Translations under genes and position numbers: made by a program
Shown: positions 30,076 through 49,118 of the stretch, one piece after another
How the letters are laid out: the number at the start of each line of letters is the position of its first letter
Position numbering within the stretch: position 1 is the first letter of the stretch
DNA from: Flavobacteriaceae bacterium
GTDB lineage: Bacteria > Bacteroidota > Bacteroidia > Flavobacteriales > Flavobacteriaceae
DNA length: 64,000 nucleotides
Direction of reading: 5' to 3'
Assembly (NCBI GenBank): GCA_947451525.1
Contig: CANFZM010000003.1
Location: forward strand, 62,001 to 126,000
The notes under the pieces: generated by a model
The model's database searches: none
Told to the model about the DNA's origin: nothing
Seen by the model: only the letters and a program-made list of their open reading frames with translations

Positions 30076-30169
30076 TAGTGATTAGTAACTAGTGATTAGT
30101 AATAAGTATTGGCGAAGATCATAAGACTTATTTAAAGACTATTCACTAATTACTCATCACTAATTACTA
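30076..30169. repeat. imperfect inverted repeat built of AGTGATTAGTAA-like units
   Basis: agtgattagtaactagtgattagtaataag ... ttcactaattactcatcactaattacta. Confidence 0.7.
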
Positions 30170-30409: not shown

Positions 30410-30462
30410 AATGTCATTGCGAGGAACGAAGCAATCTCATCCTCTAAATTAAAGTTATTAAT

Positions 30463-31338: not shown

Positions 31339-31449
31339 ATCAAACTAAATTTAGCCGTAAAAATAATAAACAATTTCTTTATTCATAGTTTATAACGTTT
31401 AAAGTTTTGACTTTAGTACAATAAATGTAAATTTGTACCTTAAATTTTA

Positions 31450-31590
31450 TTAGTTGAAGCAAATGGCTTGCGCATTTTAGTACACCCATTTCCCGCTTTT
31501 CGTTGCAATCTGTCATTGCGAGGAACGATATATCCAAAATTGCTACTCGTTTTCGCAATGCCAGGATTTCCACTTCAATCGGGGCTAAAT
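31450..31590 (+). repeat. interspersed repeat family B, copy 1 (GAAGCRAATGGCTTGCGCATTTTAG...TTTCCCGCTTTTCGTTGCAATC...GGATTTCCACTTCAATCGGGGCTA)
   Basis: Shared ends with 43054-43159 (+), 38034-38168 (-) and partial 55076-55128 (-). Confidence 0.85.
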
Positions 31591-31696
31591 TTCAATCAAT
31601 AGGAATGAAAATATAATTTTGAATCAACCCTTTCTTAAAAACAGAATTCATTTTAGTCTTTAAGAAAGAATATAAACATAAGCAATAGCGCATACA

Positions 31697-34600
31697 ATGA
31701 AATATTTCCACGAACAAATAGAAGCCAAATGGCGCAATTATTGGGCAGAAAACCAAACTTTTGCAGCAACCAACCATTCCGATAAACCAAAATATTATGT
31801 TTTGGACATGTTTCCTTATCCATCTGGAGCAGGTTTGCATGTTGGTCATCCACTAGGATATATTGCCTCCGATATTGTTGCCCGATTCAAACGCCATAAA
31901 GGATTCAATGTCTTGCATCCTCAAGGGTACGATTCCTTCGGATTGCCAGCAGAGCAATATGCTATCCAAACTGGACAACATCCCGATACTACCACCAAAG
32001 AAAACATTGCACGTTACCGCGAGCAATTAGATAAAATAGGTTTTTCCTTCGATTGGAGTCGTGAAGTGCGCACCTCCAATGCCGATTATTACAAACACAC
32101 CCAATGGATTTTCATTCAATTATTTAATTCTTGGTACAATAAAAATTCCGATAAATCCGAAGACATAACGACCCTAATTTCTGCTTTCGAAAAAGAAGGA
32201 AATAGCACAGTCAATGCTGTTTGCGACGATAATATCGCCCCATTTACGGCTGTTCAGTGGAATAGTTTTTCTTCCGAAGAACAACAAAAAATTCTATCAC
32301 AATATCGATTAACCTATTTGGCAGAAACCGAAGTGAACTGGTGTCCCGGACTTGGAACCGTTTTGGCAAACGACGAAATAATAAATGGCGTTTCCGAGCG
32401 AGGTGGCCATCCAGTAATGCGTAAAAAAATGACCCAATGGTCCATGCGAATTTCTGCTTATGCCGAACGATTATTACAAGGTTTAAACGACATAGATTGG
32501 AGTGAATCCATCAAAGAATCCCAAAGAAACTGGATTGGAAAAAGTGTTGGAGCAATGGTTAAGTTTAATGTCCTCCCCCCAGCCCCCTCCAAGGGAGGGG
32601 GAGCCGAAACAGAAATGAAATCGGATCCAAAATATCTAACAGGAGACCCTGCTATTGCTAAAAATTTATTGCTTCATGCTAAAGAAATGCGCAAAGAACC
32701 TACTTTGTCGGAAGCAATTCTTTGGGATAATTTACGTCGTGAAAAATTAGATGTTCGTTTTAGAAGACAACATTTAATAGGAAAATATATAGTAGATTTT
32801 GTGTGTTTAGAAAAAAGGTTAATAGTAGAAGTAGACGGCGATTACCACAATACTAAAGAACAATCTGAAATAGATGAAGCGAGAACTTTAGAATTAGAAC
32901 AAAAGCATAATTTTAAAGTAATTCGTTTTTCTAATGAAGAAGTTAATAAATCTATAAGTACGGTTTTAAATAAAATTCAAGGAGAATTAAATTCAAGAGC
33001 ATCTTTTCAGGCTTCGTCTCCCTCCCCTTTGGGGAGGGTTGGGGAGGGGACTTTCATAGAAGTATTCACCACCCGTCCCGACACCATTTTCGGAGTTACC
33101 TTCATGACCTTGGCGCCCGAACATGAATTAGTTTCTAAAATCACAACGCAAGAACAAAAATCTGCGGTAGATACTTATATTGAAGCAACTGCAAAGCGTT
33201 CCGAACGAGAAAGAATGGCCGATGTGAAAACCATATCCGGTGTTTTCACTGGTGCTTATGCGGAACATCCATTTACAAAAGAACCAATTCCAGTTTGGAT
33301 AGGCGATTACGTTTTGGCGGGTTACGGAACAGGAGCGGTAATGGCGGTTCCATGTGGCGATGAAAGAGATTTTGCATTTACAAATTTCTTTAAAGGTCAA
33401 AACGGAATGCCAGCAATTAAAAATATATTTAATCAAGATATTTCAGAAGCAGCCTACGGCGAAAAAACCGGTTTCGAATTAATTAATTCCGATTTCTTAA
33501 ACGGATTGGGTTATAAAGAAGGAACTAAAAAAAGTATTGAAGCATTAGAAAAGATTGCGCAAGGAAAAGGTAAAACTAATTACCGTTTGCGCGATGCAGT
33601 TTTCTCGCGTCAACGTTATTGGGGCGAACCATTTCCTGTATTTTATGTGAATGGATTGCCGCAAATGATTGATAAAAAACATTTGCCAATTGTACTTCCA
33701 GAAGTGGAAAAATACCTACCAACCGAAGACGGGCAACCGCCTTTAGGAAATGCTACTACTTGGGCGTGGGACAGCGTTCAGTGTTCAGTAGTCAGTAATC
33801 AGTTGATTGATAATGTGACTATTTTCCCTTTAGAATTGAATACCATGCCAGGTTGGGCAGGAAGTTCGTGGTATTGGATGCGTTATATGGATGCACACAA
33901 TGAAAACGAATTTGCAAGCAAAGAGGCTTTGAACTATTGGCAAAATGTAGATTTATACATAGGTGGAAGCGAACATGCAACCGGACATTTATTGTATTCT
34001 CGTTTTTGGAATAAATTCTTAAAAGACAGAGGCTATGCACCAACAGAAGAACCATTCAAAAAATTAATCAATCAAGGAATGATTTTAGGAATGAGTGCTT
34101 TTGTGTATAGAAGTGAAGATTCCAAAAAGTTATATTCCAAAGGGTTGATTTCGTGTGTAAATGTGCAGCCAATTCATGTGGATTTATCAGTTATTAATGA
34201 CGTCACTAACGAACTAGATATTGAAGCATTTAAGAAACACCCATTATATACCGATTATAAAAATGCCGAATTCATTTTAGAAAACGGAAAATATATTGTT
34301 GGTCGTGAAGTAGAAAAAATGTCCAAATCCAAATACAATGTGGTCAATCCAGATGATATTTGTAACGATTATGGTGCTGATACCTTGCGTTTGTATGAAA
34401 TGTTCTTAGGCCCATTGGAACAATCAAAACCATGGAATACCGCCGGAATAACGGGAGTTTATGGTTTCTTAAAAAAACTATGGCGTTTGTATTTTGATGA
34501 TAATGGTTCAATTGTAACTAACGATGAGCCAAGCCCAGAAATGTACAAGTCTTTACATAAAACCATAAAAAAAGTAACGGAAGATATTGAGAATTTCTCT

Positions 34601-34996
34601 TTCAATACCTCTGTTTCACAGTTTATGATTTGTGTAAACGAATTAGCAACTTTAAAATGCAACCACAGAAAAATTCTCGAACCATTGGCAATTTTAATTT
34701 CGCCTTATGCACCGCATATTGCCGAAGAATTATGGAGTCAGTTGGGTTATAAAGAATCGGTTTCCACGGCAGTATTTCCTATTTGTGAAGAGAAATATTT
34801 AGTAGAATCGGAAAAAGAATACCCAGTTTCGTTCAACGGAAAAATGCGTTTTACCATTAAATTATCTTTAGATTTAACCGTTCCGCAAATTCAAGAAATT
34901 GTAATGGCTGACGAAAGAACTATTAAACAATTGGAAGGAAGAACGCCAAATAAAGTAATCATCGTTCCAGGAAAAGTGATTAATTTAGTGGGATAA
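31697..34996 (+). CDS. leuS: leucine--tRNA ligase carrying an in-frame DUF559 nuclease-domain insertion
   Basis: FPYPSGAGLHVGHPLGY, FTTRPDTIFGVTF, KMSKSKYNVVNPDD; about 160 extra codons at 32570-33051. Confidence 0.96.
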   Translation: MKYFHEQIEAKWRNYWAENQTFAATNHSDKPKYYVLDMFPYPSGAGLHVGHPLGYIASDIVARFKRHKGFNVLHPQGYDSFGLPAEQYAIQTGQHPDTTTKENIARYREQLDKIGFSFDWSREVRTSNADYYKHTQWIFIQLFNSWYNKNSDKSEDITTLISAFEKEGNSTVNAVCDDNIAPFTAVQWNSFSSEEQQKILSQYRLTYLAETEVNWCPGLGTVLANDEIINGVSERGGHPVMRKKMTQWSMRISAYAERLLQGLNDIDWSESIKESQRNWIGKSVGAMVKFNVLPPAPSKGGGAETEMKSDPKYLTGDPAIAKNLLLHAKEMRKEPTLSEAILWDNLRREKLDVRFRRQHLIGKYIVDFVCLEKRLIVEVDGDYHNTKEQSEIDEARTLELEQKHNFKVIRFSNEEVNKSISTVLNKIQGELNSRASFQASSPSPLGRVGEGTFIEVFTTRPDTIFGVTFMTLAPEHELVSKITTQEQKSAVDTYIEATAKRSERERMADVKTISGVFTGAYAEHPFTKEPIPVWIGDYVLAGYGTGAVMAVPCGDERDFAFTNFFKGQNGMPAIKNIFNQDISEAAYGEKTGFELINSDFLNGLGYKEGTKKSIEALEKIAQGKGKTNYRLRDAVFSRQRYWGEPFPVFYVNGLPQMIDKKHLPIVLPEVEKYLPTEDGQPPLGNATTWAWDSVQCSVVSNQLIDNVTIFPLELNTMPGWAGSSWYWMRYMDAHNENEFASKEALNYWQNVDLYIGGSEHATGHLLYSRFWNKFLKDRGYAPTEEPFKKLINQGMILGMSAFVYRSEDSKKLYSKGLISCVNVQPIHVDLSVINDVTNELDIEAFKKHPLYTDYKNAEFILENGKYIVGREVEKMSKSKYNVVNPDDICNDYGADTLRLYEMFLGPLEQSKPWNTAGITGVYGFLKKLWRLYFDDNGSIVTNDEPSPEMYKSLHKTIKKVTEDIENFSFNTSVSQFMICVNELATLKCNHRKILEPLAILISPYAPHIAEELWSQLGYKESVSTAVFPICEEKYLVESEKEYPVSFNGKMRFTIKLSLDLTVPQIQEIVMADERTIKQLEGRTPNKVIIVPGKVINLVG
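32570..33051 (+). mobile_element. candidate mobile insertion in leuS: DUF559 (Vsr/PD-(D/E)XK-like) endonuclease domain bounded by inverted G/C-rich hairpins
   Basis: KEMRKEPTLSEAILWDNLRREKLDVRFRRQHLIGKYIVDFVCLEKRLIVEVDGDYHNTKEQSEIDEARTLELEQKHNFKVIRFSNEEVNKSISTVLNKI; left CCCCCTCC-AAG-GGAGGGGG, right CCCTCCCC-TTT-GGGGAGGG in opposite orientation. Confidence 0.85.
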
Positions 34997-35020
34997 TTAT
35001 CTTTTTTAAATTTTATGATA

Positions 35021-35053
35021 AAAAAAGCGATCTTTTTAAGGTCGTTTTTTTTG
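35021..35053 (+). terminator. Rho-independent terminator-like hairpin after leuS
   Basis: aaaaaaagcgatctttttaaggtcgtttttttt. Confidence 0.65.
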
Positions 35054-35233
35054 TTTTTATATTTGACCCTATTATTTTTTTAAATTAAAATTAAAAAACA
35101 CAATATTTTTAATTAACACCATTAAATTAATAGGGTATAAATTATAAAATAACTAAAAATAACCGTAGAGCCCCTATTTTATTTTATTAATTGATTTTTA
35201 ATTCCGATTTTTGACATCTAAACAACACACAAC

Positions 35234-36343
35234 ATGAAAATCGGAGTCCCAAAGGAAATTAAAAATAACGAAAGCAGAGTTGGAATGACTCCAGCTGGAG
35301 TATTTGAACTTACTAAAAACAAACATATTGTATTCATTCAATCTTCGGCAGGAGAAGGAAGCGGTTTTTTTGATGAAGATTATCTAAATGTTGGCGCTAT
35401 TATTCTCCAAACAATTGAAGAAGTTTACATGCTTAGTGATATGATTGTGAAAGTGAAAGAACCAGTTGCCGAAGAATATCCTTTAATAAAACCCAATCAG
35501 GTTCTATTCACCTATTTTCATTTTGCTTCAAGCGAAGAATTAACCTTTGCAATGCTTAAAAGTGATGCCATTTGTATCGCCTATGAAACTGTAGAAGACA
35601 CGGATGGTAGTTTGCCATTACTAACCCCAATGTCGGAAGTTGCAGGAAGAATGGCGATACAACAAGGCGCAAAATATTTAGAGAAACCTATCAAAGGTCG
35701 CGGTGTTTTGCTTGGCGGAGTTCCGGGAGTTCCTCCAGGACGTGTTTTGATTCTTGGTGCAGGTGTAGTTGGTGTGCAAGCCGCAAAAATGGCGGCAGGT
35801 TTAGGCGCCCATGTAACGATTTTAGATACCAATATGAAACGCCTTCGGTACGTTAATGATGTCATGCCACCACATGTGGTAACCGAATTTTCAAGCGAAT
35901 ACAATATTAGAAAACACATTAAAGACCATGATTTAATAATTGGTGGGGTATTAATAAAAGGTTCAAAAGCACCTAAATTAATTACCAGAGAAATGCTGAA
36001 AGAAATGCGCCCAGGTACAGTAATTGTTGATGTTGCTGTAGATCAAGGAGGCTGTTTTGAAACAACGGTTCCAACTACCCATGAAGATCCAACGTATATC
36101 ATTGACGATGTAATTCATTATTGTGTTGCCAATATGCCTGGTGCGGTGCCTTATACTTCTACAATGGCTCTAACCAATGTTACCTTGCCGTATATTTTAT
36201 TATTGGCAAATTTAGGCTGGGAGGCTGCTTGCAAAAAAGAGCCTTCCCTTGCTAAAGGACTTAATATTGTAAACGGAAAATGTGTTTATGATGAAATTAT
36301 AGAAGCTTTTGATTGGAAAGATCATGCTAAGGAAAAAATTTGA
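35234..36343 (+). CDS. ald: alanine dehydrogenase
   Basis: KIGVPKEIKNNESRVGMTPAGV, GAGVVGVQAAKMAAGLGA, PGAVPYTSTMALTNVTLPY. Confidence 0.95.
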   Translation: MKIGVPKEIKNNESRVGMTPAGVFELTKNKHIVFIQSSAGEGSGFFDEDYLNVGAIILQTIEEVYMLSDMIVKVKEPVAEEYPLIKPNQVLFTYFHFASSEELTFAMLKSDAICIAYETVEDTDGSLPLLTPMSEVAGRMAIQQGAKYLEKPIKGRGVLLGGVPGVPPGRVLILGAGVVGVQAAKMAAGLGAHVTILDTNMKRLRYVNDVMPPHVVTEFSSEYNIRKHIKDHDLIIGGVLIKGSKAPKLITREMLKEMRPGTVIVDVAVDQGGCFETTVPTTHEDPTYIIDDVIHYCVANMPGAVPYTSTMALTNVTLPYILLLANLGWEAACKKEPSLAKGLNIVNGKCVYDEIIEAFDWKDHAKEKI

Positions 36344-36432
36344 CTAATTGGCAGTTTTTAGGAATTTAAAAGAACGAATATTATTTTGGCTCATATTTTG
36401 ATGCTTATTCAGTAATTATAAAATTTACAATT

Positions 36433-37122
36433 ATGGGAATGAGTTATATGGTTTTAGCCGGAATTATTATGCTAATGAGTTGGGTGGTAAGCAGCCGATT
36501 GAAAAGCAAATTCGAATTTTATTCTAAACTACAATTGCAAAATGGCATGTCGGGTAAAGAAATTGCCGAAAAGATGTTGGCCGATAATGGTATTTATGAC
36601 GTAAAAGTAATTTCGGTAGAAGGAAGACTTACCGATCATTACAATCCTACAGATAAAACGGTAAACCTAAGTGAAGCCGTGTATAACGAAAGAAATGCAG
36701 CAGCAGCAGCGGTTGCGGCTCACGAATGTGGACATGCCGTGCAACATGCAAAAGGATATAGCATGTTGGAATTGCGGTCTAAATTGGTGCCAATTGTTTC
36801 GGTGACTTCCAATTTTGTGCAATGGATATTGTTGGCGGGAATCATTATGATACGTACTTTCCCCTCATTATTATTGCTTGGAATTGTGATTTTCGCATTA
36901 ACGACTTTGTTTACCTTAATAACTTTGCCGGTAGAATACGATGCGAGTAATCGTGCCTTGGCTTGGTTGAAAAATAAAAACATGCTAAATCCAGCAGAAT
37001 ATTCAGGTGCCGAGGATTCTTTAAAATGGGCTGCCCGAACTTATGTGGTTGCTGCGATTGGCTCTATAGGAACTTTGTTGTACTACGTTTCTATTTATCT
37101 TGGAGGAAGGAGAAACGATTAA
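36433..37122 (+). CDS. zinc metallopeptidase (YugP-like)
   Basis: AAHECGHAVQHA HExxH-like motif, membrane segments. Confidence 0.9.
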   Translation: MGMSYMVLAGIIMLMSWVVSSRLKSKFEFYSKLQLQNGMSGKEIAEKMLADNGIYDVKVISVEGRLTDHYNPTDKTVNLSEAVYNERNAAAAAVAAHECGHAVQHAKGYSMLELRSKLVPIVSVTSNFVQWILLAGIIMIRTFPSLLLLGIVIFALTTLFTLITLPVEYDASNRALAWLKNKNMLNPAEYSGAEDSLKWAARTYVVAAIGSIGTLLYYVSIYLGGRRND

Positions 37123-37154
37123 TTTTTTGGATAAAAGCGCAAATAAATATACCG

Positions 37155-37182
37155 AATCCGTTACGACAGTAGCGGATTTTTA
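37155..37182. terminator. terminator-like hairpin between convergent genes
   Basis: AATCCG ttacgacagtag CGGATT TTT. Confidence 0.55.
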
Positions 37183-37458
37183 TTTAGAAAAAGTAGATAA
37201 AATCACCGCAACCGATAACCAAACCACGCCATGAATTAGGAGGCATTTAGCATAACTTTGGTTTCCGTAGAGTTGTTTTACTAAATGCACCATAAAATAA
37301 ATGATACTAATTGGTACGAACAAATACAATAACAATACACCGCCATTGGGAGTGTTGCCGTGGGTTGGAAAAAGTTCATAACACACTCCGGCTATTAAGA
37401 TATAAATGGTGTAAAAAGCGATTGCTATATTTTCTTTTGTGAATTTGTTGAGGTTCAT
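37180..37458 (-). CDS. small hypothetical membrane protein
   Basis: 92-aa ORF with three hydrophobic segments. Confidence 0.6.
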   Translation of the reverse strand: MNLNKFTKENIAIAFYTIYILIAGVCYELFPTHGNTPNGGVLLLYLFVPISIIYFMVHLVKQLYGNQSYAKCLLIHGVVWLSVAVILSTFSK

Positions 37459-37469
37459 TGGTTTTGTAA

Positions 37470-37940
37470 TTACAATTGAATTTGTCGTTCTATTTGTTGG
37501 TCTAAGGAGATGAAGGTTTCGGTTCTGGAAACGCCATCTATGGGTTGGATTTTGGTATTTAATAGTTGCATTAAATGTTCGTTGTCTTTACAGATAATTT
37601 TGATTAAGATGCTCCAATTTCCAGTGGTGTAGTGGCATTCGAGGACTTCTGGAATTTTGCGTAATTCTTTTACTGCCTCTGAGTTGCTTGCTGCTTTTTC
37701 AAGATAGACGCCAATAAAAGCCATAGTTTTATACCCTAAAACTTTATTGTTGATGATGAATTTAGACCCCGAAATCACGCCTGCATCTTCTAGTTTTTTT
37801 AACCGTTGGTGAATGGCGGCTCCCGAAATTCCTATTTTGTTTGCTATTTGCAATATTGGTTTTCGAGCATCTTCCATTAGGTCCCGAAGGATTTCTTTGT
37901 CGATGCCGTCAATTTCTATTTGAAGTTGGTTGATTTTCAT
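37470..37940 (-). CDS. Lrp/AsnC family transcriptional regulator
   Basis: IDGIDKEILRDLMEDARKPILQIANKIGISGAAIHQRLKKLEDAGVI. Confidence 0.95.
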   Translation of the reverse strand: MKINQLQIEIDGIDKEILRDLMEDARKPILQIANKIGISGAAIHQRLKKLEDAGVISGSKFIINNKVLGYKTMAFIGVYLEKAASNSEAVKELRKIPEVLECHYTTGNWSILIKIICKDNEHLMQLLNTKIQPIDGVSRTETFISLDQQIERQIQL

Positions 37941-38033
37941 TGGCGCTAAATTTAAAGCAAAAATAAGAATATTGTTTCAATTGTAAAGCAAAAAGTGATT
38001 ATAACTAATAATTTTACAAAAGACATAACCTAT

Positions 38034-38168
38034 CTAGCCCCGGGTGAAGTGGAAATCCTGGCATTGCGTTAACGATAAGCATTATTGGATTGCTTGGTTC
38101 CGCGCAATGACAGATTGCAACGAAAAACGGGAATGACATTTACTAAAATGCCTACCCATTCGCTCCTA
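38034..38168 (-). repeat. interspersed repeat family B, copy 3
   Basis: tagccccgggtgaagtggaaatcctgg...cagattgcaacgaaaaacgggaatgacatttactaaaatgcctacccattcgctcc. Confidence 0.85.
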
Positions 38169-38207
38169 AAATAACTTAGAACCTAAGAATCTCAGTTCCT
38201 TAGAACC

Positions 38208-39584
38208 TTAATTGGAAGTCACTAATTTATCAGGATTGTAGCCAATATAAGGCATTGCGGTTTCGTTGAAAACAACTCCAAATTCTTCCAACTCTTTTAA
38301 TATTGGCTCGTAAACTTCTTTGCGAATTGGCAGTTGCACGCCTGGAGTTTTAATGTTTCCGTTTAGGATTTGCAGGGTTGCGATTGCAACGGGAAGCCCC
38401 ACGGTTTTTGCCATGGCGGTGTAGGTTTGGTCGTCGCCAATGCACACCATTTTGGAATCGATTTGGTATTGTTGCCCTTGTATTTCGTAGCCAAATTTAT
38501 GGTACATGACAATCATGTCTTTGTCTTTTGGTTGCAAAGTCCAACTGTCGTTGAGGATGCGCTCTAAAATTTGTGCGGGAGTTGCATTTTTTAGTCCAAC
38601 GATTTTATTGGAATTGAATAAATCGAGTTCTAAAAGTTTGTCCCACATGATGTCGTCTTGCTCTATATTTAGGGCCATACGGGTTTTAATTTCAACAGAA
38701 TCGGTAGGGTGGTAGGGCAAAAAAGAATTGGTGAATTCGCGGAAACTCATGTTTTCGGAGTTTTCCATAGAATAAGTGTCGTCGGTCATGCCGAGTTGCA
38801 CGAACATGTTCCAAGCCTTTGAAAAGCCAACTCTTCGAATGGTGCCACGATATAAAGTTAGGGCATCATCTAGACCATAAACGCTGCGGTATTTTAGGGA
38901 ATCTCTGTTGGCGTAGCCTTCAAATTTTCCGTAACCTTCTACCATTAAAAATTCAGTTCTTCGGAATAATTTAGTGTAGGGGATGTATTTGTATTTTCCT
39001 TCTTGAATAAATTTGGCTGCGCCACCTTGACCTGCAAGAACTACGTTTCTTGGTGCCCAAGTGAATTTGTAGTTCCAAAGATTGTTGTCGCTTTCGGGCG
39101 CTACTAGTCCGCCACAAAAGGATTCGAATAGTATTATTTTGCCGCCTTTTTCTCTTATATCTTCAATAACTTTCATAGCGCTCATGTGATCAATACCAGG
39201 ATCTAGGCCAATTTCGTTCATGAAAATTAGTCCGTTTTCTTTGGCAGCTGCATCTAATTCTTGCATGGCATCGGAAACATAAGAAGCGGTAACCATGTGT
39301 TTTTTGTAAGTGAGGCAGTCTTTGGCAACTTCAATGTGCAAATGTGCCGGAAGCATCGAAATTACGATGTCGGCTTTAGCAATTTCGGAATGTCGTTGGG
39401 ATTCGTTAGTAATGTCTAACGCAATTGCGCTGGCATTAGGATGGTTATTGGTTTTTCGTTGTGCTAATTCTAATGAAATATCGGCAATGGTAAGGTGCAA
39501 ATTTTCTTGCGTAGATTTATTTAAAAGGTATTGTATAAGGGAGGATGCCGAACGTCCGGCACCTATGATTAGTATATTTCTCAT
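38208..39584 (-). CDS. saccharopine dehydrogenase-family protein (reductase/C-terminal type)
   Basis: MRNILIIGAGRSASSLIQYLL, NEIGLDPGIDHMSAMKVI; start at 39584 preferred. Confidence 0.92.
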   Translation of the reverse strand: MRNILIIGAGRSASSLIQYLLNKSTQENLHLTIADISLELAQRKTNNHPNASAIALDITNESQRHSEIAKADIVISMLPAHLHIEVAKDCLTYKKHMVTASYVSDAMQELDAAAKENGLIFMNEIGLDPGIDHMSAMKVIEDIREKGGKIILFESFCGGLVAPESDNNLWNYKFTWAPRNVVLAGQGGAAKFIQEGKYKYIPYTKLFRRTEFLMVEGYGKFEGYANRDSLKYRSVYGLDDALTLYRGTIRRVGFSKAWNMFVQLGMTDDTYSMENSENMSFREFTNSFLPYHPTDSVEIKTRMALNIEQDDIMWDKLLELDLFNSNKIVGLKNATPAQILERILNDSWTLQPKDKDMIVMYHKFGYEIQGQQYQIDSKMVCIGDDQTYTAMAKTVGLPVAIATLQILNGNIKTPGVQLPIRKEVYEPILKELEEFGVVFNETAMPYIGYNPDKLVTSN

Positions 39585-39651
39585 AATTTGTTTGTAAATG
39601 GAATACAAATTTAGGAATTTGTAATGATTTGACACTCTTTTTTGACAAAAA

Positions 39652-39682
39652 CAAAAAAGCCCACGCAAAATAGAATGGGCTT
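39652..39682 (-). terminator. terminator-like hairpin downstream of the 39704-40018 gene
   Basis: AAAGCCCA cgcaaaatagaa TGGGCTTT with A-run on + strand (T-run on -). Confidence 0.65.
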
Positions 39683-39703
39683 TGGTGTTTGTTGGGAGTA
39701 GAA

Positions 39704-40018
39704 TTACTCTAAACCTTCTAGATCTTTAATGTCTTCTTTTTTAGATTCTAATTTTTGTTGTTCAAATTGGGTGTCAACCGCAACTTTATCTTTTATTAAA
39801 AAGGTTTTCCCTAAAACTACTAAGGCGCAGATATAGGTAACAATGAAAAGTATCTTGGTGAATTTTCGTTGTGCAACATCCGATTTTTTAAAGGTTAAGA
39901 AAATAAAAAGCGATGCCAATCCGATAGGTGCGAGTGCTAGAGTATCTAAAGGCAATATCGAAAAAATAATACTAACTACGGTTAGAACGATGGCAATAAT
40001 TAATAAAGTTTTTCTCAT
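39704..40018 (-). CDS. hypothetical membrane protein
   Basis: 104-aa ORF, three TM-like segments. Confidence 0.65.
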   Translation of the reverse strand: MRKTLLIIAIVLTVVSIIFSILPLDTLALAPIGLASLFIFLTFKKSDVAQRKFTKILFIVTYICALVVLGKTFLIKDKVAVDTQFEQQKLESKKEDIKDLEGLE

Positions 40019-40020
40019 GA

Positions 40021-40782
40021 TTATATTCCAGATGCTGAAGTTAATGCTAATTGGCCAGTGCCTACAGGAATGCTAAATTTCATTAAAACCGGTACTTTTT
40101 TAGCATCGGCAGTTAAGTAAATTAGGTTTTTATCTTTCCCTTTTAGGACATCGGTTTTGGCTCCGATAGAAAGTTTATAGCAATTTTTAGAACCTAAATT
40201 TCCTGCAGAAACGGTTTCGGTTCCTAGTAATTTTACCGTTACCGGAATTTGTGTTTCGTCAAAAACAGCAACAAACGATTGCGACTGTCCAGTTTTCATT
40301 TTGGTAATATCCATAGTTCTTAATTTGTACATTAAGGAAACTACGTCTTGTGTGGAACCACCAACGGTAAATGTTTTTGTAGTTTCAGGACTGTTTTTTC
40401 TTTTAGAAGTACTAGTTACAGTATTGCCTTTAAATAAATATTTTTCTTTTTTTGTCCATCCACCTTCATCAATGCTTCTTTTGTATAGGCTTGGTTTCAA
40501 AGTTGTTGGGTCAACATAAGATTCGTAAGCATCTCTTATTTTAAAGAACTTATCCCATTTTGCATAAGTGGCTAACTCACAGTTTAAATGTAAAAACGGA
40601 CCTTTTGCGGTGTTCACCATTTCTGTTGAAAGAGTGACTTGAGCCAATTGGGTCATTAGTCCGCTCATATTATAGGAGCCAACAAATATTAATTTTTCTC
40701 CTGAAGGAATTCCAGTATTTGTTTCTGTTTTAAAAGAACAAAAAATCAAAATTAGTGCTAGTGAAAATAACGCTTTTTTCAT
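40021..40782 (-). CDS. DUF3108 domain-containing protein
   Basis: Signal peptide; GEKLIFVGSYNMSGLMTQLAQVTL, DVVSLMYKLRTMD. Confidence 0.85.
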   Translation of the reverse strand: MKKALFSLALILIFCSFKTETNTGIPSGEKLIFVGSYNMSGLMTQLAQVTLSTEMVNTAKGPFLHLNCELATYAKWDKFFKIRDAYESYVDPTTLKPSLYKRSIDEGGWTKKEKYLFKGNTVTSTSKRKNSPETTKTFTVGGSTQDVVSLMYKLRTMDITKMKTGQSQSFVAVFDETQIPVTVKLLGTETVSAGNLGSKNCYKLSIGAKTDVLKGKDKNLIYLTADAKKVPVLMKFSIPVGTGQLALTSASGI

Positions 40783-40904
40783 AAAAAAATATTTAAATGC
40801 AAATATAAAAGTTTAAAATTGTTTAATCTAAAAGAAAACATAAAAGTCCTTTCGCAATTGATAGATAACTGATAAATTTGTTAAAAATTATATCCTATCC
40901 AAAA

Positions 40905-41291
40905 ATGAATAACAAAATACTATCTACAGCAGCTTTTTTCGGAATGACCTCTATAGTTTTAGGTGCTTTTGGTGCACATGCCTTGAAACAAGTTTTAACT
41001 GCAGATCAATTAATAACTTTTGAAACCGGAGTTAAATACCAAATGTACCATGCTTTATTTTTGTTGTTTTTAGGACTGAACACTCATTTGAGTACTAAAG
41101 TTAAGAAAACTATCTTAGTTTTAACCATTTTAGGTGTAATTTTCTTTTCAGGATCTATTTATTTATTGGCTACTGATAGTTTGAATACATTCAATTTCAA
41201 GGCAATAGGTTTTGTAACTCCAATAGGAGGATTGCTCTTAATTATTGCTTGGAGTATCTTAATGGTCCAATTTTTAAAGAAAAAAATATAA
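40905..41291 (+). CDS. DUF423 family membrane protein
   Basis: FGMTSIVLGAFGAHALKQ, TGVKYQMYHALFLL. Confidence 0.92.
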   Translation: MNNKILSTAAFFGMTSIVLGAFGAHALKQVLTADQLITFETGVKYQMYHALFLLFLGLNTHLSTKVKKTILVLTILGVIFFSGSIYLLATDSLNTFNFKAIGFVTPIGGLLLIIAWSILMVQFLKKKI

Positions 41292-41371
41292 TTTACTTAT
41301 TAACTACAACGTTGTAATAATAATTTTTTACCTTTGTACTCGAATTAATAATTGCAATACAACACATTTTT

Positions 41372-42997
41372 ATGGACAATTACACTCCAGTTACGAAATC
41401 GATTTCGTTAGAAAAATACGGAATACGAAATGCACAAGAAATTATTTACAATCCTTCTTTCGAATTTTTATATGAAGAAGAATTAAATCCAGACTTAAAA
41501 GGCTATGAGAGAGGTCAATTGACGGAACTCGGAGCCGTGAATGTAATGACTGGTGAGTTTACTGGTCGTTCTCCAAAAGATAAATATATTGTTAAAGACA
41601 GCATTACCGAAAATACGGTTTGGTGGAATTCTGAAAAAGCAGTTAACGACAACAAGCCTATTTCTCAAACTACTTGGAATGCTTTAAAAGAAACCACTGC
41701 AGAACAACTTTCTGGAAAACGATTGTTTGTTGTAGATGCTTTTTGTGGTGCTAATGAAAATAGCCGACTAAAAGTTCGTTTTATTATGGAAGTGGCTTGG
41801 CAAGCGCATTTTGTAAAAAATATGTTCATTCGTCCATCCGAAGAAGAATTAGAAAATTTTGGAGAACCTGATTTTGTAGTAATGAATGGTTCCAAAACAA
41901 GTTTCAAAGATTATAAAAACCACGGATTAAATTCGGAAGTATATGTTGCCTTTAACCTTACTGAAAAAATCCAATTAATTGGTGGTACTTGGTATGGTGG
42001 TGAGATGAAAAAAGGGTTGTTCTCTATGATGAACTACTACTTGCCTTTACAAGGAATGGCCTCTATGCACTGTTCGGCTAATAAAGGTGCCGATGGTGAT
42101 GTTGCTATTTTCTTTGGATTATCTGGAACAGGAAAAACCACTTTATCTACCGATCCAAAAAGAGAGTTAATTGGAGACGACGAACACGGATGGGATAACG
42201 ATGGCGTATTCAATTTTGAAGGAGGCTGTTATGCCAAAACCATCGATTTAAGTAAAGAAAACGAACCAGATATTTATGGTGCAATTACTAAAGACGCATT
42301 ATTGGAAAACGTTACGGTAGATGCCAATGGAAAAATTGATTTCAAAGACGGTTCAGTTACTCAAAATACAAGAGTTTCTTATCCAATAAACCACATTCAC
42401 AATATTGTAAAACCAGTTTCTAAAGCGGGTCATGCTACAAAAGTTATCTTTTTAACTGCAGATGCCTTTGGAGTAATGCCTCCAGTTTCTAAATTAACTC
42501 CTGAACAAACTAAATATTATTTTCTTTCCGGATTTACGGCTAAATTAGCAGGAACCGAAAGAGGAGTAACCCAACCAGAACCAACTTTCTCGGCTTGTTT
42601 TGGCAAAGCATTCCTTTCTTTGCATCCAACACAATACGGACAAGAATTAGTTAAGAAAATGGAAGAGCACCATGCTACTGCCTATATGGTTAACACGGGC
42701 TGGAACGGAACCGGAAAACGTATTTCTATAAAAGATACCCGTGCTATTATTGATGCTATATTAGATGGTTCTATTGAAAAAGCAGCAACTAAAACAATTC
42801 CAGTTTTTGATTTTGTGGTTCCTACTGCTTTGCACGATGTAAATCCAGCAATTTTAGACCCAAGAGATACGTATGCCGATGTTGCCGAATGGAACACCAA
42901 AGCAACCGATTTAGCAGGGCGATTCATTAAAAATTTCGTTCAATATACCGATAATGCGGAAGGTGAAAATCTAGTTCAAGCAGGCCCAAAATTATAA
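41372..42997 (+). CDS. pckA: phosphoenolpyruvate carboxykinase (ATP)
   Basis: [34 protein letters not shown]. Confidence 0.98.
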
Positions 42998-43020
42998 TAC
43001 ACAAACAAACTAAACGGAAA

Positions 43021-43050
43021 GAGTTCGGCAGTAATGCCGGACTTTTTTTA
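43021..43050 (+). terminator. Rho-independent terminator after pckA
   Basis: AGTTCGGCA gtaa TGCCGGACT + T-run. Confidence 0.85.
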
Positions 43051-43053
43051 TTA

Positions 43054-43159
43054 GAAGCGAATGGCTTGCGCATTTTAGAAAAGGCAATTCCCGCTTTTCG
43101 TTCCAATCTTAACAAACCTGTAAGGTTTATTAAGATTTCCACTGCAATCGGGGCTAAAT
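43054..43159 (+). repeat. interspersed repeat family B, copy 2
   Basis: agaagcgaatggcttgcgcattttag...caattcccgcttttcgttccaatc...agatttccactgcaatcggggctaaa. Confidence 0.85.
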
Positions 43160-43244
43160 AGGTTTTGTCTTTTGTGAAATTATTTTTCAAATACAGCATT
43201 AAACAAATAGAGAAATTGTAAAATAAATCTTAATTCATAAGCAT

Positions 43245-43289
43245 AAAATCCCAAATTCTTCCGATAACTCGGGGTGAATTTGGGATTTT
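43245..43289 (-). terminator. terminator-like hairpin after hemD-like gene
   Basis: Perfect 14-bp stem AAAATCCCAAATTC / GAATTTGGGATTTT. Confidence 0.65.
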
Positions 43290-43306
43290 AATATTTAGAA
43301 ATTTTC

Positions 43307-44068
43307 TTATTTATTTCCTTTGTTGGCTTCTGCAACATAACGTTCTAAAGCCATTGTCATAGAAGGTGTTTCTGGTGTTGGCGCTAGAATATCAATTCGA
43401 AGTCCGTGTTCTAATGCTTCTTTTTGAGTAGTACTTCCAAAAACAGCAATTCGAGTTTCATTTTGTTTAAAATCAGGAAAGTTTTTAAACAACGATTTAA
43501 TTCCAGTTGGGCTAAAGAATGCTAAAACATCATAATATACATCAGCTAAATCCGATAAATCACTCATTACGGTTTTGTAAAAAACTGCCGGAGTCCAATC
43601 GATTTTTAAATTGTTTAAAGTGGTTGGTGCATCAGCATTTAATTGGTCGGATGCAGGTAATAAAAACTTTTCGTCTTTATATTTTTTGAAAAGAGGTGCC
43701 ATATCTGCAAAATCTTTTTGTCCAACATAAATCTTGCGTTTTCTATAAACTACATATTTTTGTAAATAAAAAGCAATTGCTTCCGATTGGCAAAAATATC
43801 TTAAGTCTTCAGGAACTTTGTAACGCATTTCCTCGGCAACTTTAAAGAAGTGGTCCACCGCATTTTTGCTGGTTAAAATAATAGCCGTAAAATTATTAAG
43901 GTCTATTTTTTGAGCCCTTACGTCTTTCGCGCTTACGCCTTCTACATGAATAAAAGAGCGAAAATCTATTTTTACCTTATGTTTTTGTTGTAAATCAAAA
44001 TAAGGGGAATTCTCTACTTTTGGCTCTGGCTGTGACACCAAAATCGTTCTTACTTTCAAGTTTGACAT
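43307..44068 (-). CDS. hemD: uroporphyrinogen-III synthase
   Basis: RTILVSQPEP, ILTSKNAVDHFF, VLAFFSPTGIKSLFKNFP. Confidence 0.88.
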   Translation of the reverse strand: MSNLKVRTILVSQPEPKVENSPYFDLQQKHKVKIDFRSFIHVEGVSAKDVRAQKIDLNNFTAIILTSKNAVDHFFKVAEEMRYKVPEDLRYFCQSEAIAFYLQKYVVYRKRKIYVGQKDFADMAPLFKKYKDEKFLLPASDQLNADAPTTLNNLKIDWTPAVFYKTVMSDLSDLADVYYDVLAFFSPTGIKSLFKNFPDFKQNETRIAVFGSTTQKEALEHGLRIDILAPTPETPSMTMALERYVAEANKGNK

Positions 44069-44076
44069 GTTGTGCT

Positions 44077-44751
44077 CTAATTTTTTGTAATCAAATAATA
44101 TATGAAATAATAAGGGGCTATTTCAAGTGCGCAAAGATACAAAATAAAATAAAAGAACTTACTAAATATAAAATTTTGATAAATTTTTAAGGAAACAAAA
44201 TAAGTAAGTACATTAATTGTTAATAAAATAAGAATAATTGCATATATTATGAAATTTGTAATATAATTACTATAAAATAGAATTATCGTAATGGGTAGTA
44301 ATAATAGTCCAATGTAGGTTCGGAATGTAACTTTTTGTAAATTAAACTGCTCAATGACTTCTTCAATTCCAAAAATAGTTGCTATTATTTTTTCTATCAA
44401 GAACTTAGAGAAAATAAAAACAGTTAAAAGTGTGAAAATCCTAACAAATAAAATCCAATCTGTTTTTGCGCCCAATCCTAAATGAAAGGAAATCAATTGT
44501 ATAAAAAAGGAGAAAGAAATGAGATTGACAATCACAAGTAACACATTGAAGCCACCCATTAAATGGGAACTTTCTTTGTATATTTTTGTATATTTATTGG
44601 ATACAATTAATCGGATAAAATCATTAAAACGCGAATCAAAAGCCGATTTTGCGATGGCAATAAGTACAATAGAAAATATAAAAACAAGCGTTGCCCAGTC
44701 TTTAGTTTCTATCAATCTTAGGTGTAATTGTTGCGCTATCATCGGGAGCAA
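44077..44751 (-). CDS. DUF4271-type membrane protein
   Basis: Multi-TM protein adjacent to hemD, typical Bacteroidetes neighbourhood. Confidence 0.75.
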   Translation of the reverse strand: MLPMIAQQLHLRLIETKDWATLVFIFSIVLIAIAKSAFDSRFNDFIRLIVSNKYTKIYKESSHLMGGFNVLLVIVNLISFSFFIQLISFHLGLGAKTDWILFVRIFTLLTVFIFSKFLIEKIIATIFGIEEVIEQFNLQKVTFRTYIGLLLLPITIILFYSNYITNFIIYAIILILLTINVLTYFVSLKIYQNFIFSKFFYFILYLCALEIAPYYFIYYLITKN

Positions 44752-44847
44752 AATTACTAAATTTTATTTGTTCCATACTATTATAATTTTATTAAGATTA
44801 GGATGGTATAAAATGAGTATTTTTGCATAAACTATATTACTTTAAAT

Positions 44848-45573
44848 ATGAATTGTGGACTTGTAATTATTCCAACCTATAACGAAATTGAAAACATTGA
44901 AAGTATTGTGAGAGCAGTCTTTTCTTTACATAAACCATTTCATGTGCTTATTGTTGACGATAATTCACCAGATGGAACTGCAATTAAGGTAAAAGAACTG
45001 CAATTAGAATTTTCAGATAAATTGTTTTTAGAGCAGCGCGCAAAAAAAGCAGGATTGGGTACTGCTTACGTTCATGGATTTAAATGGGCTTTGGCTCGTA
45101 ATTATGATTTCATTTTTGAAATGGATGCCGATTTTTCGCACAACCCTCACGATTTAGAACGTTTGTACGATGCTTGTCATTTTGGAGGTGCCGATTTGGC
45201 AATAGGTTCACGTTATGTTACAGGAGTAAATGTAGTAAACTGGCCTTTAAGCAGGGTTTTACTATCTTATTTTGCTTCCGTTTATGTGCGAATGATTACC
45301 GGAATGAAAATTATGGATGCCACGGCTGGCTTTATTTGCTACAGCAGAAAAGTTCTTGAAAGCATAAATTTAGATAAGATAAAGTTTATTGGATATGCTT
45401 TTCAAATTGAAATGAAATACAGAGCATTTTCTAAAAATTTCAACATACAAGAAGTTCCTGTTATTTTTACCGATAGAACCAAAGGACAATCTAAAATGAG
45501 TGGTTCTATTATAAAAGAAGCCATTTTTGGAGTTTTGTCTTTACGCATAAAAAAAATGTTTAATAATCTATAA
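44848..45573 (+). CDS. polyprenol monophosphomannose synthase-like glycosyltransferase (GT2)
   Basis: VIIPTYNEIENIESIV, VDDNSPDGT, EMDADFSHNP. Confidence 0.93.
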   Translation: MNCGLVIIPTYNEIENIESIVRAVFSLHKPFHVLIVDDNSPDGTAIKVKELQLEFSDKLFLEQRAKKAGLGTAYVHGFKWALARNYDFIFEMDADFSHNPHDLERLYDACHFGGADLAIGSRYVTGVNVVNWPLSRVLLSYFASVYVRMITGMKIMDATAGFICYSRKVLESINLDKIKFIGYAFQIEMKYRAFSKNFNIQEVPVIFTDRTKGQSKMSGSIIKEAIFGVLSLRIKKMFNNL

Positions 45574-45627
45574 ATTAATGTTTCATTGTTTTAGTAAAAT
45601 AAAGCCTTGAACAAAGCAGAATAAATG

Positions 45628-46968
45628 ATGAATACCGTTTTAATAAAGAATGCGAAGATTGTAAATGAAGGTAGAATTTTTGAAGGGGATGTTTTAATTG
45701 AAGGCGAATTTATTAAGGAAATTGCCCAAAGTATTAGCCATAAAAGTTCTAATTGTAAAGTTATTGATGCCGAAGGAAATTTTTTAATTCCTGGTGCTAT
45801 TGATGACCAAGTGCATTTTCGCGAACCAGGATTAACCCACAAGGGAACTATCGCTTCCGAAAGTAGAGCAGCAGTTGCTGGCGGAATTACCTCTTTTATA
45901 GAGCAGCCCAATACGGTACCAAATGCAATTACTCAAGAATTATTAGAGCAAAAATATCTAATTGCTTCCCAAAGTTCGTATGCCAATTATTCGTTTATGA
46001 TGGGTGGAACGAATGATAATTTGGAAGAGATTTTAAAAACAAATCCGAAAAATGTTGCGGGAATAAAATTATTTTTAGGTTCTTCCACCGGAAACATGCT
46101 GGTAGATAACGAAGCAACATTAGAAAAAATATTTTCCAGTACCAAAATGCTTATAGCCGTACATTGTGAAGATGAAGCAACAATTAAAGCAAATCTAGAA
46201 AAATATAAAGCCGAATTTGGAGACGATATTCCCGTTACGGTGCATCATTTAATTCGGAGTGAGGAGGCTTGCTATATATCTTCTTCCAAAGCAATTGCTC
46301 TTGCTAAAAAAACGGGTGCAAGATTGCATGTTTTTCATCTTTCAACAGCCAAAGAAATGGATCTTTTTTCAAATAAAATTCCGTTGGCCGAAAAACAAAT
46401 TACCGCAGAGGTTTGCATACACCATCTTTGGTTTTCCAATGAAGATTATGCTACTAAAGGAAATTTCATCAAATGGAATCCTGCTGTAAAAACTGCTGCC
46501 GATAGAGATGCCCTATGGACAGCATTGCTAAACGATACTATAGATGTTATCGCCACCGATCATGCACCTCATACTTTAGAAGAAAAATCGCAAAAATACC
46601 TTAGCGCTCCTTCGGGAGGACCATTAGTACAACATGCGGTTGTAGCAATGTTTGAAGCATTCCACCAAGGCAAAATCTCGGTGGAGAAAATCGTTCAAAA
46701 AATGTGTCACAATCCGGCAATTATTTTTAAGATTGAAAAAAGAGGTTTTATCAAAGAAGGATATTATGCCGATTTGGCAATTGTTAATCCGTCTAAACCA
46801 TGGAGTGTTAGCAAAGACAATATTTTATACCAATGCGGATGGTCTCCATTTGAAGGAACTAATTTCAAATCTAGAATTTCGCATACTTTTGTAAACGGTC
46901 AATTAGTGTTTGAAAATGCTAAAGTGAAAGAGATAAAAGCAGCACAAAGATTATTATTTGATAGATAA
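45628..46968 (+). CDS. pyrC: dihydroorotase
   Basis: PGAIDDQVHFREPGLTHKG, IATDHAPHTLEEK. Confidence 0.93.
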   Translation: MNTVLIKNAKIVNEGRIFEGDVLIEGEFIKEIAQSISHKSSNCKVIDAEGNFLIPGAIDDQVHFREPGLTHKGTIASESRAAVAGGITSFIEQPNTVPNAITQELLEQKYLIASQSSYANYSFMMGGTNDNLEEILKTNPKNVAGIKLFLGSSTGNMLVDNEATLEKIFSSTKMLIAVHCEDEATIKANLEKYKAEFGDDIPVTVHHLIRSEEACYISSSKAIALAKKTGARLHVFHLSTAKEMDLFSNKIPLAEKQITAEVCIHHLWFSNEDYATKGNFIKWNPAVKTAADRDALWTALLNDTIDVIATDHAPHTLEEKSQKYLSAPSGGPLVQHAVVAMFEAFHQGKISVEKIVQKMCHNPAIIFKIEKRGFIKEGYYADLAIVNPSKPWSVSKDNILYQCGWSPFEGTNFKSRISHTFVNGQLVFENAKVKEIKAAQRLLFDR

Positions 46969-46977
46969 TTTTATACT

Positions 46978-47361
46978 ATGAAAAAAATTATTTTACTTTT
47001 TACAACCCTTATTTTTGCACTCACTAGTTGCAAAGACGAAATTATTCCCAAGCCAAAAAATCTTATTCCAAGAGATAAAATGGAAGATATTATTTATGAT
47101 TTAGCTATTTTAGAAGCTGCGAAGACGCAAAATTCTTCGGTTCAGAATTATGAAAAACCAACCGTATTCATTAAAAATAAATACAAAGTAGATAGTTTAA
47201 CATTTGCTAAAAGTACCCAATATTACGCATCCGACATTAAAGAATATAAAAAAATGTATGATGAGGTAAAAGAACGTCTTATGGCAGAAAAAGAAAAATT
47301 ATCCGGGAAAAAGGTTACAAAAGCAGTTAAGTTTGTTCCCGAAGAAGGACTTGTAGAATAA
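46978..47361 (+). CDS. DUF4296-type lipoprotein
   Basis: Lipobox LTSCKDE; IPRDKMEDIIYDLAILEAAK. Confidence 0.85.
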   Translation: MKKIILLFTTLIFALTSCKDEIIPKPKNLIPRDKMEDIIYDLAILEAAKTQNSSVQNYEKPTVFIKNKYKVDSLTFAKSTQYYASDIKEYKKMYDEVKERLMAEKEKLSGKKVTKAVKFVPEEGLVE

Positions 47362-47367
47362 TTATTT
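47287..47367 (+). repeat. 81-bp direct repeat, copy 1 (3' end of the DUF4296 gene)
   Basis: Manual alignment to 48012-48092 without gaps, about 84% identical. Confidence 0.85.
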
Positions 47368-47450
47368 ATTAGAATCTACATTAAATAATTCTCCAAATTT
47401 TTTTCAATTTCTTTTTTCTTACTTTTACAATACGTTTAAATTAAGTTATT

Positions 47451-47615
47451 ATGAAAACTGCAACAGAAAAACCTAAAAACTTAGCCACCCCAGGCAAACC
47501 AATGTTACAAGAAGAATTCGTTTCTTTGATTAGAGAAGCAGAGAAGGGTGAGTTTTTGACAGAAAAAGAATTTGATGAAAAGTTTCAAAAATGGAGGTTA
47601 GAAAGAAAGAAGTAG
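47451..47615 (+). CDS. putative antitoxin (54 aa), partner of the ParE-like toxin
   Basis: MKTATEKPKNLATPGKPMLQEEFVSLIREAEKGEFLTEKEFDEKFQKWRLERKK; 3' end overlaps the toxin start by 25 nt; not in the ORF track because of size. Confidence 0.7.
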   Translation: MKTATEKPKNLATPGKPMLQEEFVSLIREAEKGEFLTEKEFDEKFQKWRLERKK

Positions 47616-47923
47616 TTCGATCAACTTTTTATTTTAATGACATTCAAGATGTTTTTGAATATGGCGAAGTTTTTTTTGGCGAGAAAGCGGCTTCATATTT
47701 TTATGAAGATTTAAAATTAAGAGTTCGGAATTTAGAAACCCAATACCTTCTTCATCTGGAATGTCGACATTTGGAAACCAAAACCAAGATATATAGAAAT
47801 ATCATCTTAGGATCCTATTTGATAATTTATAGAATTAGAGCAAATAGAATAGAAGTACTAAGAGCATTTCACGGTAGCAGATCACCAAAAATCATAAGGC
47901 TAGTGAAAAAAGTAAAAATTTAA
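47591..47923 (+). CDS. RelE/ParE family type II toxin
   Basis: LETKTKIYRNIILGSYLIIYRIRANRIEVLRAFHGSRSP. Confidence 0.88.
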   Translation: MEVRKKEVVRSTFYFNDIQDVFEYGEVFFGEKAASYFYEDLKLRVRNLETQYLLHLECRHLETKTKIYRNIILGSYLIIYRIRANRIEVLRAFHGSRSPKIIRLVKKVKI

Positions 47924-48011
47924 ATCGCATTCAAGTATTGAAAGTGAGTGCTAAACTTCATAACTTATCTAATAATAACGCATTAAGGAATTATTGAAAA
48001 TGTTTACTGCT

Positions 48012-48092
48012 GAAAACCCAAAATTATCCAGAAACAAAGTTGCAAAAGCAGTTAAGTTTGTTCTTCAAGAAGGACTTGTGAAATAATTATTT
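48012..48092 (+). repeat. 81-bp direct repeat, copy 2 (orphan copy of the DUF4296 3' end)
   Basis: Encodes ...NPKLSRNKVAKAVKFVLQEGLVK* versus ...KEKLSGKKVTKAVKFVPEEGLVE*. Confidence 0.85.
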
Positions 48093-49118
48093 TTTAAAAT
48101 AACGAACGACTTCCTCTAGATAAGAATCTATATCTTGGAAGGAATAATTCAACTGTTTTATTATTTTTTCGTTGGAATAAACGTCGGTGTTTTGTAGAGA
48201 TTGAATGCTGTGTTTAGATAATTTTCTTTTAGTTCTAAGCACTTTGGATGCTAACCAATCTAGCCGCCAAGCAAGATTTAATAGCCAAGGTTTGGCTTTT
48301 ATATTTGGAATTTTTGCTCCTAATTTTTTTGCAATAGTTGAGAGGATATTCTTGTAAGTACAATTTTCAGAAATTACAATAAAACGTTCACCACTACAAT
48401 TGGAGTTCATTAATTTATACATTATCGAAACTACATCTACCACAGAAACATATCCCGTTGTGCCGTTGGTGTAAAACGGAAACCCTTTCTTTATAGAGTT
48501 AAAAACAACCCCACTGCCTTGATTATAAAAACCTGGTCCAAAAACAACCCCAGGATTTACAATGATAATTGGCAAACCTTCTTGAAAACCACGCCATACT
48601 TCCATTTCAGCGCCATATTTTGAAATAGCATAATCGCTGTGAGAATATTCTGGGTTCCATTCAGTCTCTTCGTCAATGGTATTTTGATTAATCTGTTCGT
48701 CTTTCTGGTTGGAGTGATTTTGAACTAAATCACCAAGTGCTGCAATTGAACTTACGTGACATAATTTTTTTATTTTTTTGTCAATGCAAAAGTTTATAAT
48801 GTTTGCTGTTCCTTCAATATTTGCTTTTCGTAAATCTTCTTCGTCTTCGGGATTGAAGGATATGAAAGCCGCACAATGGTATACGTAATCTACATTTTGG
48901 AAGGCAATTTCTAGAGAAGGAATGTCTAGAATATCGGCAGGAACCCATTCGATTTTTAAAAATAAGTCGCCTTTTTCGTAAAGTTCGAAAAGCAATTTTG
49001 TTTTATTTATGTTTTTTGGATTTCGATGCAAAGCACGAACCCTATCTGCCCCATTTTCTAATAAATGAAGTAGTAAATGCGCTCCTACTAAACCTGTTCC
49101 TCCAGTAACTAATATCAT
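48087..49118 (-). CDS. NAD-dependent epimerase/dehydratase (extended SDR)
   Basis: MILVTGGTGLVGAHLLLHLLE, YAISKYGAE. Confidence 0.92.
   Translation of the reverse strand: MILVTGGTGLVGAHLLLHLLENGADRVRALHRNPKNINKTKLLFELYEKGDLFLKIEWVPADILDIPSLEIAFQNVDYVYHCAAFISFNPEDEEDLRKANIEGTANIINFCIDKKIKKLCHVSSIAALGDLVQNHSNQKDEQINQNTIDEETEWNPEYSHSDYAISKYGAEMEVWRGFQEGLPIIIVNPGVVFGPGFYNQGSGVVFNSIKKGFPFYTNGTTGYVSVVDVVSIMYKLMNSNCSGERFIVISENCTYKNILSTIAKKLGAKIPNIKAKPWLLNLAWRLDWLASKVLRTKRKLSKHSIQSLQNTDVYSNEKIIKQLNYSFQDIDSYLEEVVRYFKK

What the first reader, a model, noticed from the sequence alone, without database searches (positions are those of the whole stretch)
47287..48092. Toxin-antitoxin cassette bracketed by a duplicated gene 3' end
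Seen: an 81-bp tract at 47287-47367 (3' end of the DUF4296 gene plus a few nt) recurs at 48012-48092, 725 bp downstream, with about 84% identity by manual gap-free alignment, reading frame and stop preserved (AKAVKFVPEEGLVE* vs AKAVKFVLQEGLVK*). The TA pair lies exactly between the copies. Inference: the cassette arrived by an insertion or recombination that regenerated the host gene's end, or by tandem duplication with replacement of the intervening DNA. The divergence between copies suggests it came with donor sequence from another strain or species.
Basis: partly seen in the sequence, partly recalled or inferred. Interest (0 to 1): 0.68.

Follow-up and report, generated by a model that had tools for sequence, protein, structure and literature searches.

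The report
Rearrangement scar flanking a resident toxin-antitoxin
The repeated gene end around this toxin-antitoxin pair is a scar of chromosome rearrangement: an inversion moved the DUF4296 gene next to a toxin-antitoxin that already lived there, and the second copy is a leftover piece of DUF4296 still attached to its old neighbour gene.

Summary
The repeat is real: 68/81 (84%) as reported, 79/97 over its full extent (47279-47375 vs 48004-48100), and present only here in the genome. The reading 'a cassette arrived' is not supported. In 23 of 30 related Flavobacterium-group loci the same antitoxin-toxin pair sits at one ancestral site, between truB and trx-pyrH-frr. In most relatives examined, DUF4296 lies tail-to-tail with the epimerase gene E. 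In the nearest relative (G028), the truB...DUF4296 segment is inverted, giving DUF4296|TA and truB|E junctions; the DUF4296|TA junction is the one in the window. So the TA stayed and DUF4296 came to it. Copy 1 is DUF4296's native end. Copy 2 is a fossil DUF4296 tail whose stop abuts E's stop with 0 bp between, as in uninverted relatives. No other TA locus is bracketed. The species tree is ((window, G028), G129), but E sites favour (G028, G129) (Fisher p 8e-6), suggesting that E plus the tail came from an uninverted relative; duplication associated with inversion is the rival. The event is ordinary genome plasticity. A side finding is more interesting: in two groups of close genomes the TA exchanges a ~230-bp block (antitoxin C-terminal half plus toxin N-terminal half) between nearly constant ends.

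The parts
46978..47361 (+). DUF4296 lipoprotein gene, complete, with its native 3' end
   Evidence: PF14129 E 2e-20; colinear with G028 through the stop
47279..47375 (+). Repeat copy 1: DUF4296 3' end, stop, and ~14 nt like the 3' end of the epimerase gene
47376..47450 (+). Spacer with the TA promoter region; its distal part (TTTCTTACTTTTACAAT) matches the truB-TA spacers of other genomes. The DUF4296|TA inversion junction lies at its left edge
47451..47615 (+). Antitoxin-like ORF, 54 aa, overlapping the toxin start
47591..47923 (+). ParE/RelE-superfamily toxin, 110 aa, intact here; the G028 ortholog has 4 stops
   Evidence: PF05016
47924..47980 (+). Native right flank of the TA, alignable with G028 (shuffle p about 0.006)
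48004..48100 (+). Repeat copy 2: fossil DUF4296 3' end (stop 48084-48086) directly abutting the E stop, plus the E 3' end
   Evidence: 0-bp stop-to-stop spacing as in G087, G063, G163, G013
48087..49118 (-). NAD-dependent epimerase/dehydratase (E), ancestral convergent neighbour of DUF4296; single copy in the genome
   Evidence: PF01370 E 4e-29
28591..47361 (.). Segment truB...DUF4296 that is inverted relative to TA and E in G028 (there ~24 kb)
28518..28590 (.). accC|truB junction, a further rearrangement junction of this genome (truB's ancestral 3' neighbour is TA or trx)

Best explanation
The bracket is a rearrangement scar, not an insertion site. (1) Shown by comparison: the ancestral order is trx-(TA)-truB...DUF4296><E. 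(2) Shown in G028, inferred for the common ancestor with the window: the truB...DUF4296 segment inverted, putting the DUF4296 3' end upstream of the resident TA and truB against E. (3) Inferred: in the window's lineage the E gene with an 81-nt tail of DUF4296 and its own promoter region (about 48004-49170) now lies downstream of the TA. Most likely it came by illegitimate recombination from a related chromosome that still had the uninverted DUF4296-E order. Copy 1 is therefore the resident DUF4296 end, copy 2 is the passenger tail of the epimerase segment, and the TA between them never moved as a cassette. Copy 2 has no predicted function. I put steps 1-2 at about 0.9 and the donor origin in step 3 at about 0.6.
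For: TA at truB-(nlpC/omp)-trx-pyrH in 23 of 30 loci (gene orders). DUF4296><E adjacency in most DUF4296 loci examined, none with a second gene end. G028: DUF4296|TA and truB|E junctions, TA right flank omp-trx-pyrH still ancestral. G129: truB|E junction too. DUF4296|TA spacer homologous between window and G028. Copy 2 stop abuts E stop with 0 bp, as in G087, G063, G163, G013, so it is an unbroken ancestral junction, whereas in G028 and G129 the truB and E stops are 3 bp apart with no DUF4296 remnant. Concatenated tree ((window,G028),G129) 98/98, AU test rejects (G028,G129) p 0.0068. E is discordant: 33 sites for (G028,G129) vs 19 for (window,G028), other genes 95 vs 190; Fisher p 8e-6. E dS window-G028 0.77 and window-G129 0.97 vs 0.44 and 0.60 pooled, but G028-G129 0.48 vs 0.635. 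No other TA locus is bracketed.
Against: The E gene tree alone does not reject (window,G028): p 0.32. dS varies along the region (0.2-0.97; gene 44077 is also high), so recombination or rate variation elsewhere could mimic the E signal. Copies 1 and 2 and the G028 end are about equally distant (64, 62, 57 of 78), so 81 nt cannot date the duplication. The TA|copy 2 junction is seen only in this assembly; about 20 bp at it (47981-48003) have no identified origin and no microhomology was found.
Confidence: 0.78

Rival explanations
1. Duplication associated with inversion. The inversion of truB...DUF4296 had staggered breaks that copied the 97-bp DUF4296/E junction to both ends; a second flip of [TA + segment] turned the inverted copies into direct repeats around the TA. 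No foreign DNA is needed.
For: The overlap has the expected form: copy 1 = whole DUF4296 plus a bit of E, copy 2 = whole E plus a bit of DUF4296. Such duplications are described at inversion breakpoints (PMC3355041; in H. pylori as cited in PMC4671568 and PMC3120642).
Against: G028 and G129 share a tight truB|E junction without any remnant, while the species tree places the window with G028. The remnant would have to persist only in the window's line and be lost cleanly twice, or be lost and regained. E site patterns are discordant.
Confidence: 0.28
2. One reading: the TA cassette inserted at the DUF4296 3' end with a long target duplication or a donor-supplied gene end.
For: The TA lies exactly between the copies. 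The family is patchy (34 of 400 genus genomes), and 5 of 30 loci lie away from truB.
Against: The TA is at its ancestral truB/pyrH site in 23 of 30 loci and keeps its right flank in G028. No repeat at any of the other 29 loci. G028 has DUF4296-TA without a second copy. No integrase or transposase gene lies between the copies.
Confidence: 0.05
3. Assembly artefact: two strains' contigs were joined at the repeat.
For: The genome is a draft in 51 contigs; the TA|copy 2 junction is unique to it.
Against: The longest exact match between the copies is only about 21 nt; contamination is listed as 0.01%; the DUF4296|TA junction is independently present in G028; E and DUF4296 are single copy.
Confidence: 0.06

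Closest known systems
DNA duplication associated with inversion (Furuta et al. 2011, H. pylori, as cited in PMC4671568 and PMC3120642) and staggered-break inversions in Drosophila (PMC3355041)
   Same: A short single-copy segment at an inversion breakpoint exists twice, each copy attached to one of the old neighbours
   Different: The copies here are direct, not inverted, and flank the TA; two sister genomes with the same inversion lack the second copy
Illegitimate recombination in natural transformation, with donor DNA from a relative (background knowledge; the topic appears in PMC8116780)
   Same: Would join a donor segment (DUF4296 tail + E) at a non-homologous site
   Different: No donor genome and no microhomology at the junction were found
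Chromosomal ParE/RelE-type type II TA modules
   Same: Short antitoxin gene overlapping a PF05016 toxin gene
   Different: The antitoxin matches no family searched; resident at a fixed chromosomal site rather than a mobile cassette

Membership tests
Insertion with target (gene-end) duplication by a mobile TA cassette | Empty site in relatives lacking the element, single gene end | tested here: met
   DUF4296 loci without the TA have a single gene end
Insertion with target (gene-end) duplication by a mobile TA cassette | Every insertion of the element carries the repeat | tested here: not met
   No repeat above shuffle level at any of 29 other TA loci, including G028
Insertion with target (gene-end) duplication by a mobile TA cassette | The element, not the host gene, is what changed place | tested here: not met
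   TA at truB-trx-pyrH in 23 of 30 loci; truB...DUF4296 segment inverted in G028
Duplication associated with inversion | An inversion with a breakpoint at the duplicated segment | tested here: met
   Inversion truB...DUF4296 in G028, breakpoint at the DUF4296/E junction
Duplication associated with inversion | Copies in inverted orientation at the two breakpoints | tested here: not met
   Copies are direct and both on one side; a second flip would be needed
Duplication associated with inversion | Remnant present at the reciprocal junction in genomes carrying the inversion | tested here: not met
   truB|E junctions of G028 and G129 have 3 bp and no remnant
ParDE/RelBE type II TA | Toxin of the ParE/RelE superfamily | tested here: met
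   PF05016 E 5e-8 above gathering score; weak PDB hits to a ParE toxin and other TA toxins
ParDE/RelBE type II TA | Antitoxin of a known family | tested here: not met
   No hit in Pfam, NCBIfam or PADLOC
ParDE/RelBE type II TA | Toxicity neutralised by the partner | not testable with these tools
   Needs expression in a laboratory host

The most novel reading that the evidence does not exclude
The inversion altered the 3' end of E (E is 340 aa in G028 and G129, with a changed C-terminus), and the window's lineage later regained an E with the original end, together with a stub of its old neighbour, from an uninverted relative: horizontal restoration of a gene altered by an inversion, with the stub as the receipt.
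Probability: 0.3. Interest if true: 0.42.

Novelty: new member of a known kind. Interest (0 to 1): 0.3.

Why it matters
It shows that a repeat flanking a toxin-antitoxin pair, normally read as the footprint of cassette insertion, can arise because the chromosome moved around a resident TA. Gene-end repeats should be checked against ancestral gene order before mobility is claimed. The orphan tail also records the former neighbour of the epimerase and so helps to order the rearrangements of a plastic region. The exchange of the antitoxin/toxin interface block seen in passing would be the better starting point for experiments.

Tried and rejected
Repeat brackets at the other TA loci: none. Microhomology at the TA|copy 2 junction (TTACTGCT shared with the omp 5' end of G028): no better than shuffles, p 0.42. 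Dating by copy divergence: 81 nt do not resolve it. E tree alone: p 0.32, not decisive. Second E or DUF4296 copy in the genome: none. The omp gene of G028 in the window's genome: absent. Toxin on plasmids or phages: one distant plasmid hit (39.5%, Parabacteroides), no phage hit. A second draw of genus genomes brought no closer relatives. The related-loci scan returned 4 loci, one of them only partial.

Full report
Observation. The repeat exists as described: 68/81 without gaps, and 79/97 over its full length, 47279-47375 and 48004-48100. It is far above chance: the next best match to the 81-mer in the window is 42/81, and it is unique in the 2.84-Mb genome. Between the copies lie a 54-aa ORF (47451-47615) and an overlapping 110-aa ParE-family toxin (47591-47923; PF05016). 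The copy 1 gene is a complete DUF4296 lipoprotein gene and the only one in the genome. The genome is one of a group that, from the named neighbour found (Flavobacterium sp. SUN046), is probably Flavobacterium; most genomes here are unnamed handles.

Where the TA comes from. A search of 400 genus genomes found the toxin in 34. Reading the flanks of 30 loci, 23 have the pair between truB and the trx / pyrH / frr genes, in the same orientation, with nlpC- or omp-like genes sometimes added. Five lie elsewhere, and two lie next to DUF4296: the window and G028. In relatives without the TA, truB is next to omp or trx directly. The pair is therefore an old and often lost resident of that site.

Where DUF4296 comes from. 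In most DUF4296 loci examined the gene is followed by the convergent epimerase E; in G087, G063, G163 and G013 the two stop codons abut with 0 bp. In G028 the whole segment from truB to DUF4296 is inverted: E meets truB, and DUF4296 meets the TA, whose right side still reads omp-trx-pyrH. G129 shows the same truB|E junction but has lost the TA, and its DUF4296 is cut short. The window shares the DUF4296|TA junction with G028: the DNA is alignable from the dihydroorotase gene through the TA to about 47980.

What copy 2 is. Its stop (48084-48086) abuts the E stop (48087-48089) exactly as in the uninverted genomes, so it is the old DUF4296 end still attached to E. Conversely, copy 1 carries about 14 nt beyond its stop that resemble the E 3' end (12/14). 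The two copies are thus two versions of the same ancestral DUF4296/E junction: one went with DUF4296, one stayed with E.

How both versions came into one genome. Two routes fit. In the first, inversion with staggered breaks duplicates the junction, and later flips place TA and E side by side. In the second, an E segment with its tail came from a chromosome that had never inverted. The concatenated tree of 11 nearby genes is ((window,G028),G129) with 98/98 support, and (G028,G129) is rejected at p 0.0068. Since G028 and G129 share a truB|E junction with 3 bp and no remnant, their common ancestor, which is also the window's, most simply lacked the remnant; this favours the second route. E itself agrees: its informative sites favour (G028,G129) 33 to 19, against 95 to 190 in the other genes (Fisher p 8e-6), and its dS to the window is high (0.77 and 0.97 against 0.44 and 0.60 pooled). 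The E gene tree alone is not decisive (p 0.32) and dS is uneven in this region, so I hold this step at about 0.6. Other junctions unique to the window (accC|truB; E|49711; trx|next gene) show that the region was rearranged further. I do not reconstruct the full order of events.

Verdict. The structure is a rearrangement scar around a resident TA pair, of a known general kind (PMC3355041, PMC4671568).

A side finding worth more attention. Four genomes with nearly identical flanks (L044, L047, L055, L063; mostly 0.87-1.00 identity per 60 bp) differ sharply in one block, +81 to +317 from the antitoxin start (mostly 0.58-0.80), covering the antitoxin C-terminal half and the toxin N-terminal half; only L055 and L063, which share a class, stay closer there. 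A second group shows the same (L045 against L060, L061, L062, L064; 0.62-0.82 in the block). Across 30 loci the antitoxin class and the toxin class go together in 29 by a mechanical rule; the exception, L070, is a toxin with a broken frame. The simplest reading is exchange of the partner-recognition block by recombination within constant ends; one paper search found no description, which is weak evidence of novelty.

Noticed in passing
L044, L047, L055, L063; L045 vs L060, L061, L062, L064; window 47531-47767 (homologous block): TA allele swapping: a ~230-bp block (antitoxin C-terminal half + toxin N-terminal half) is highly diverged (mostly 0.58-0.80) between genomes whose flanking DNA is mostly 0.87-1.00 identical; two coupled classes, 29 of 30 loci concordant.
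   Followed up: partly
window 29268-30065 and loci L044-L072, L142-L152: uppP next to truB varies from about 92% to 32% identity among genomes whose truB is 77-92% identical, suggesting replacement of uppP by distant alleles at a fixed place.
   Followed up: no
L002/L039 (G028), L068, L069, L070: Toxin pseudogenes: stops or frameshifts in the toxin while the antitoxin ORF stays open in G028 and L068.
   Followed up: no
L074 (G129) 1501-1841: DUF4296 is truncated in G129 within the same 3' region and followed by unrelated genes: the 3' end of this gene is a reused breakpoint in the clade.
   Followed up: partly
window 28518-28590; 49119-55128; just right of the window at 67762-67840: Three more junctions unique to this genome: accC|truB, E|large repetitive ORFs|rpoN, trx|67840; the region is strongly rearranged relative to relatives.
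   Followed up: partly
window 48001-48086: The fossil tail forms a 28-codon ORF starting with an in-frame ATG (MFTAENPKLSRNKVAKAVKFVLQEGLVK); probably accidental.
   Followed up: no
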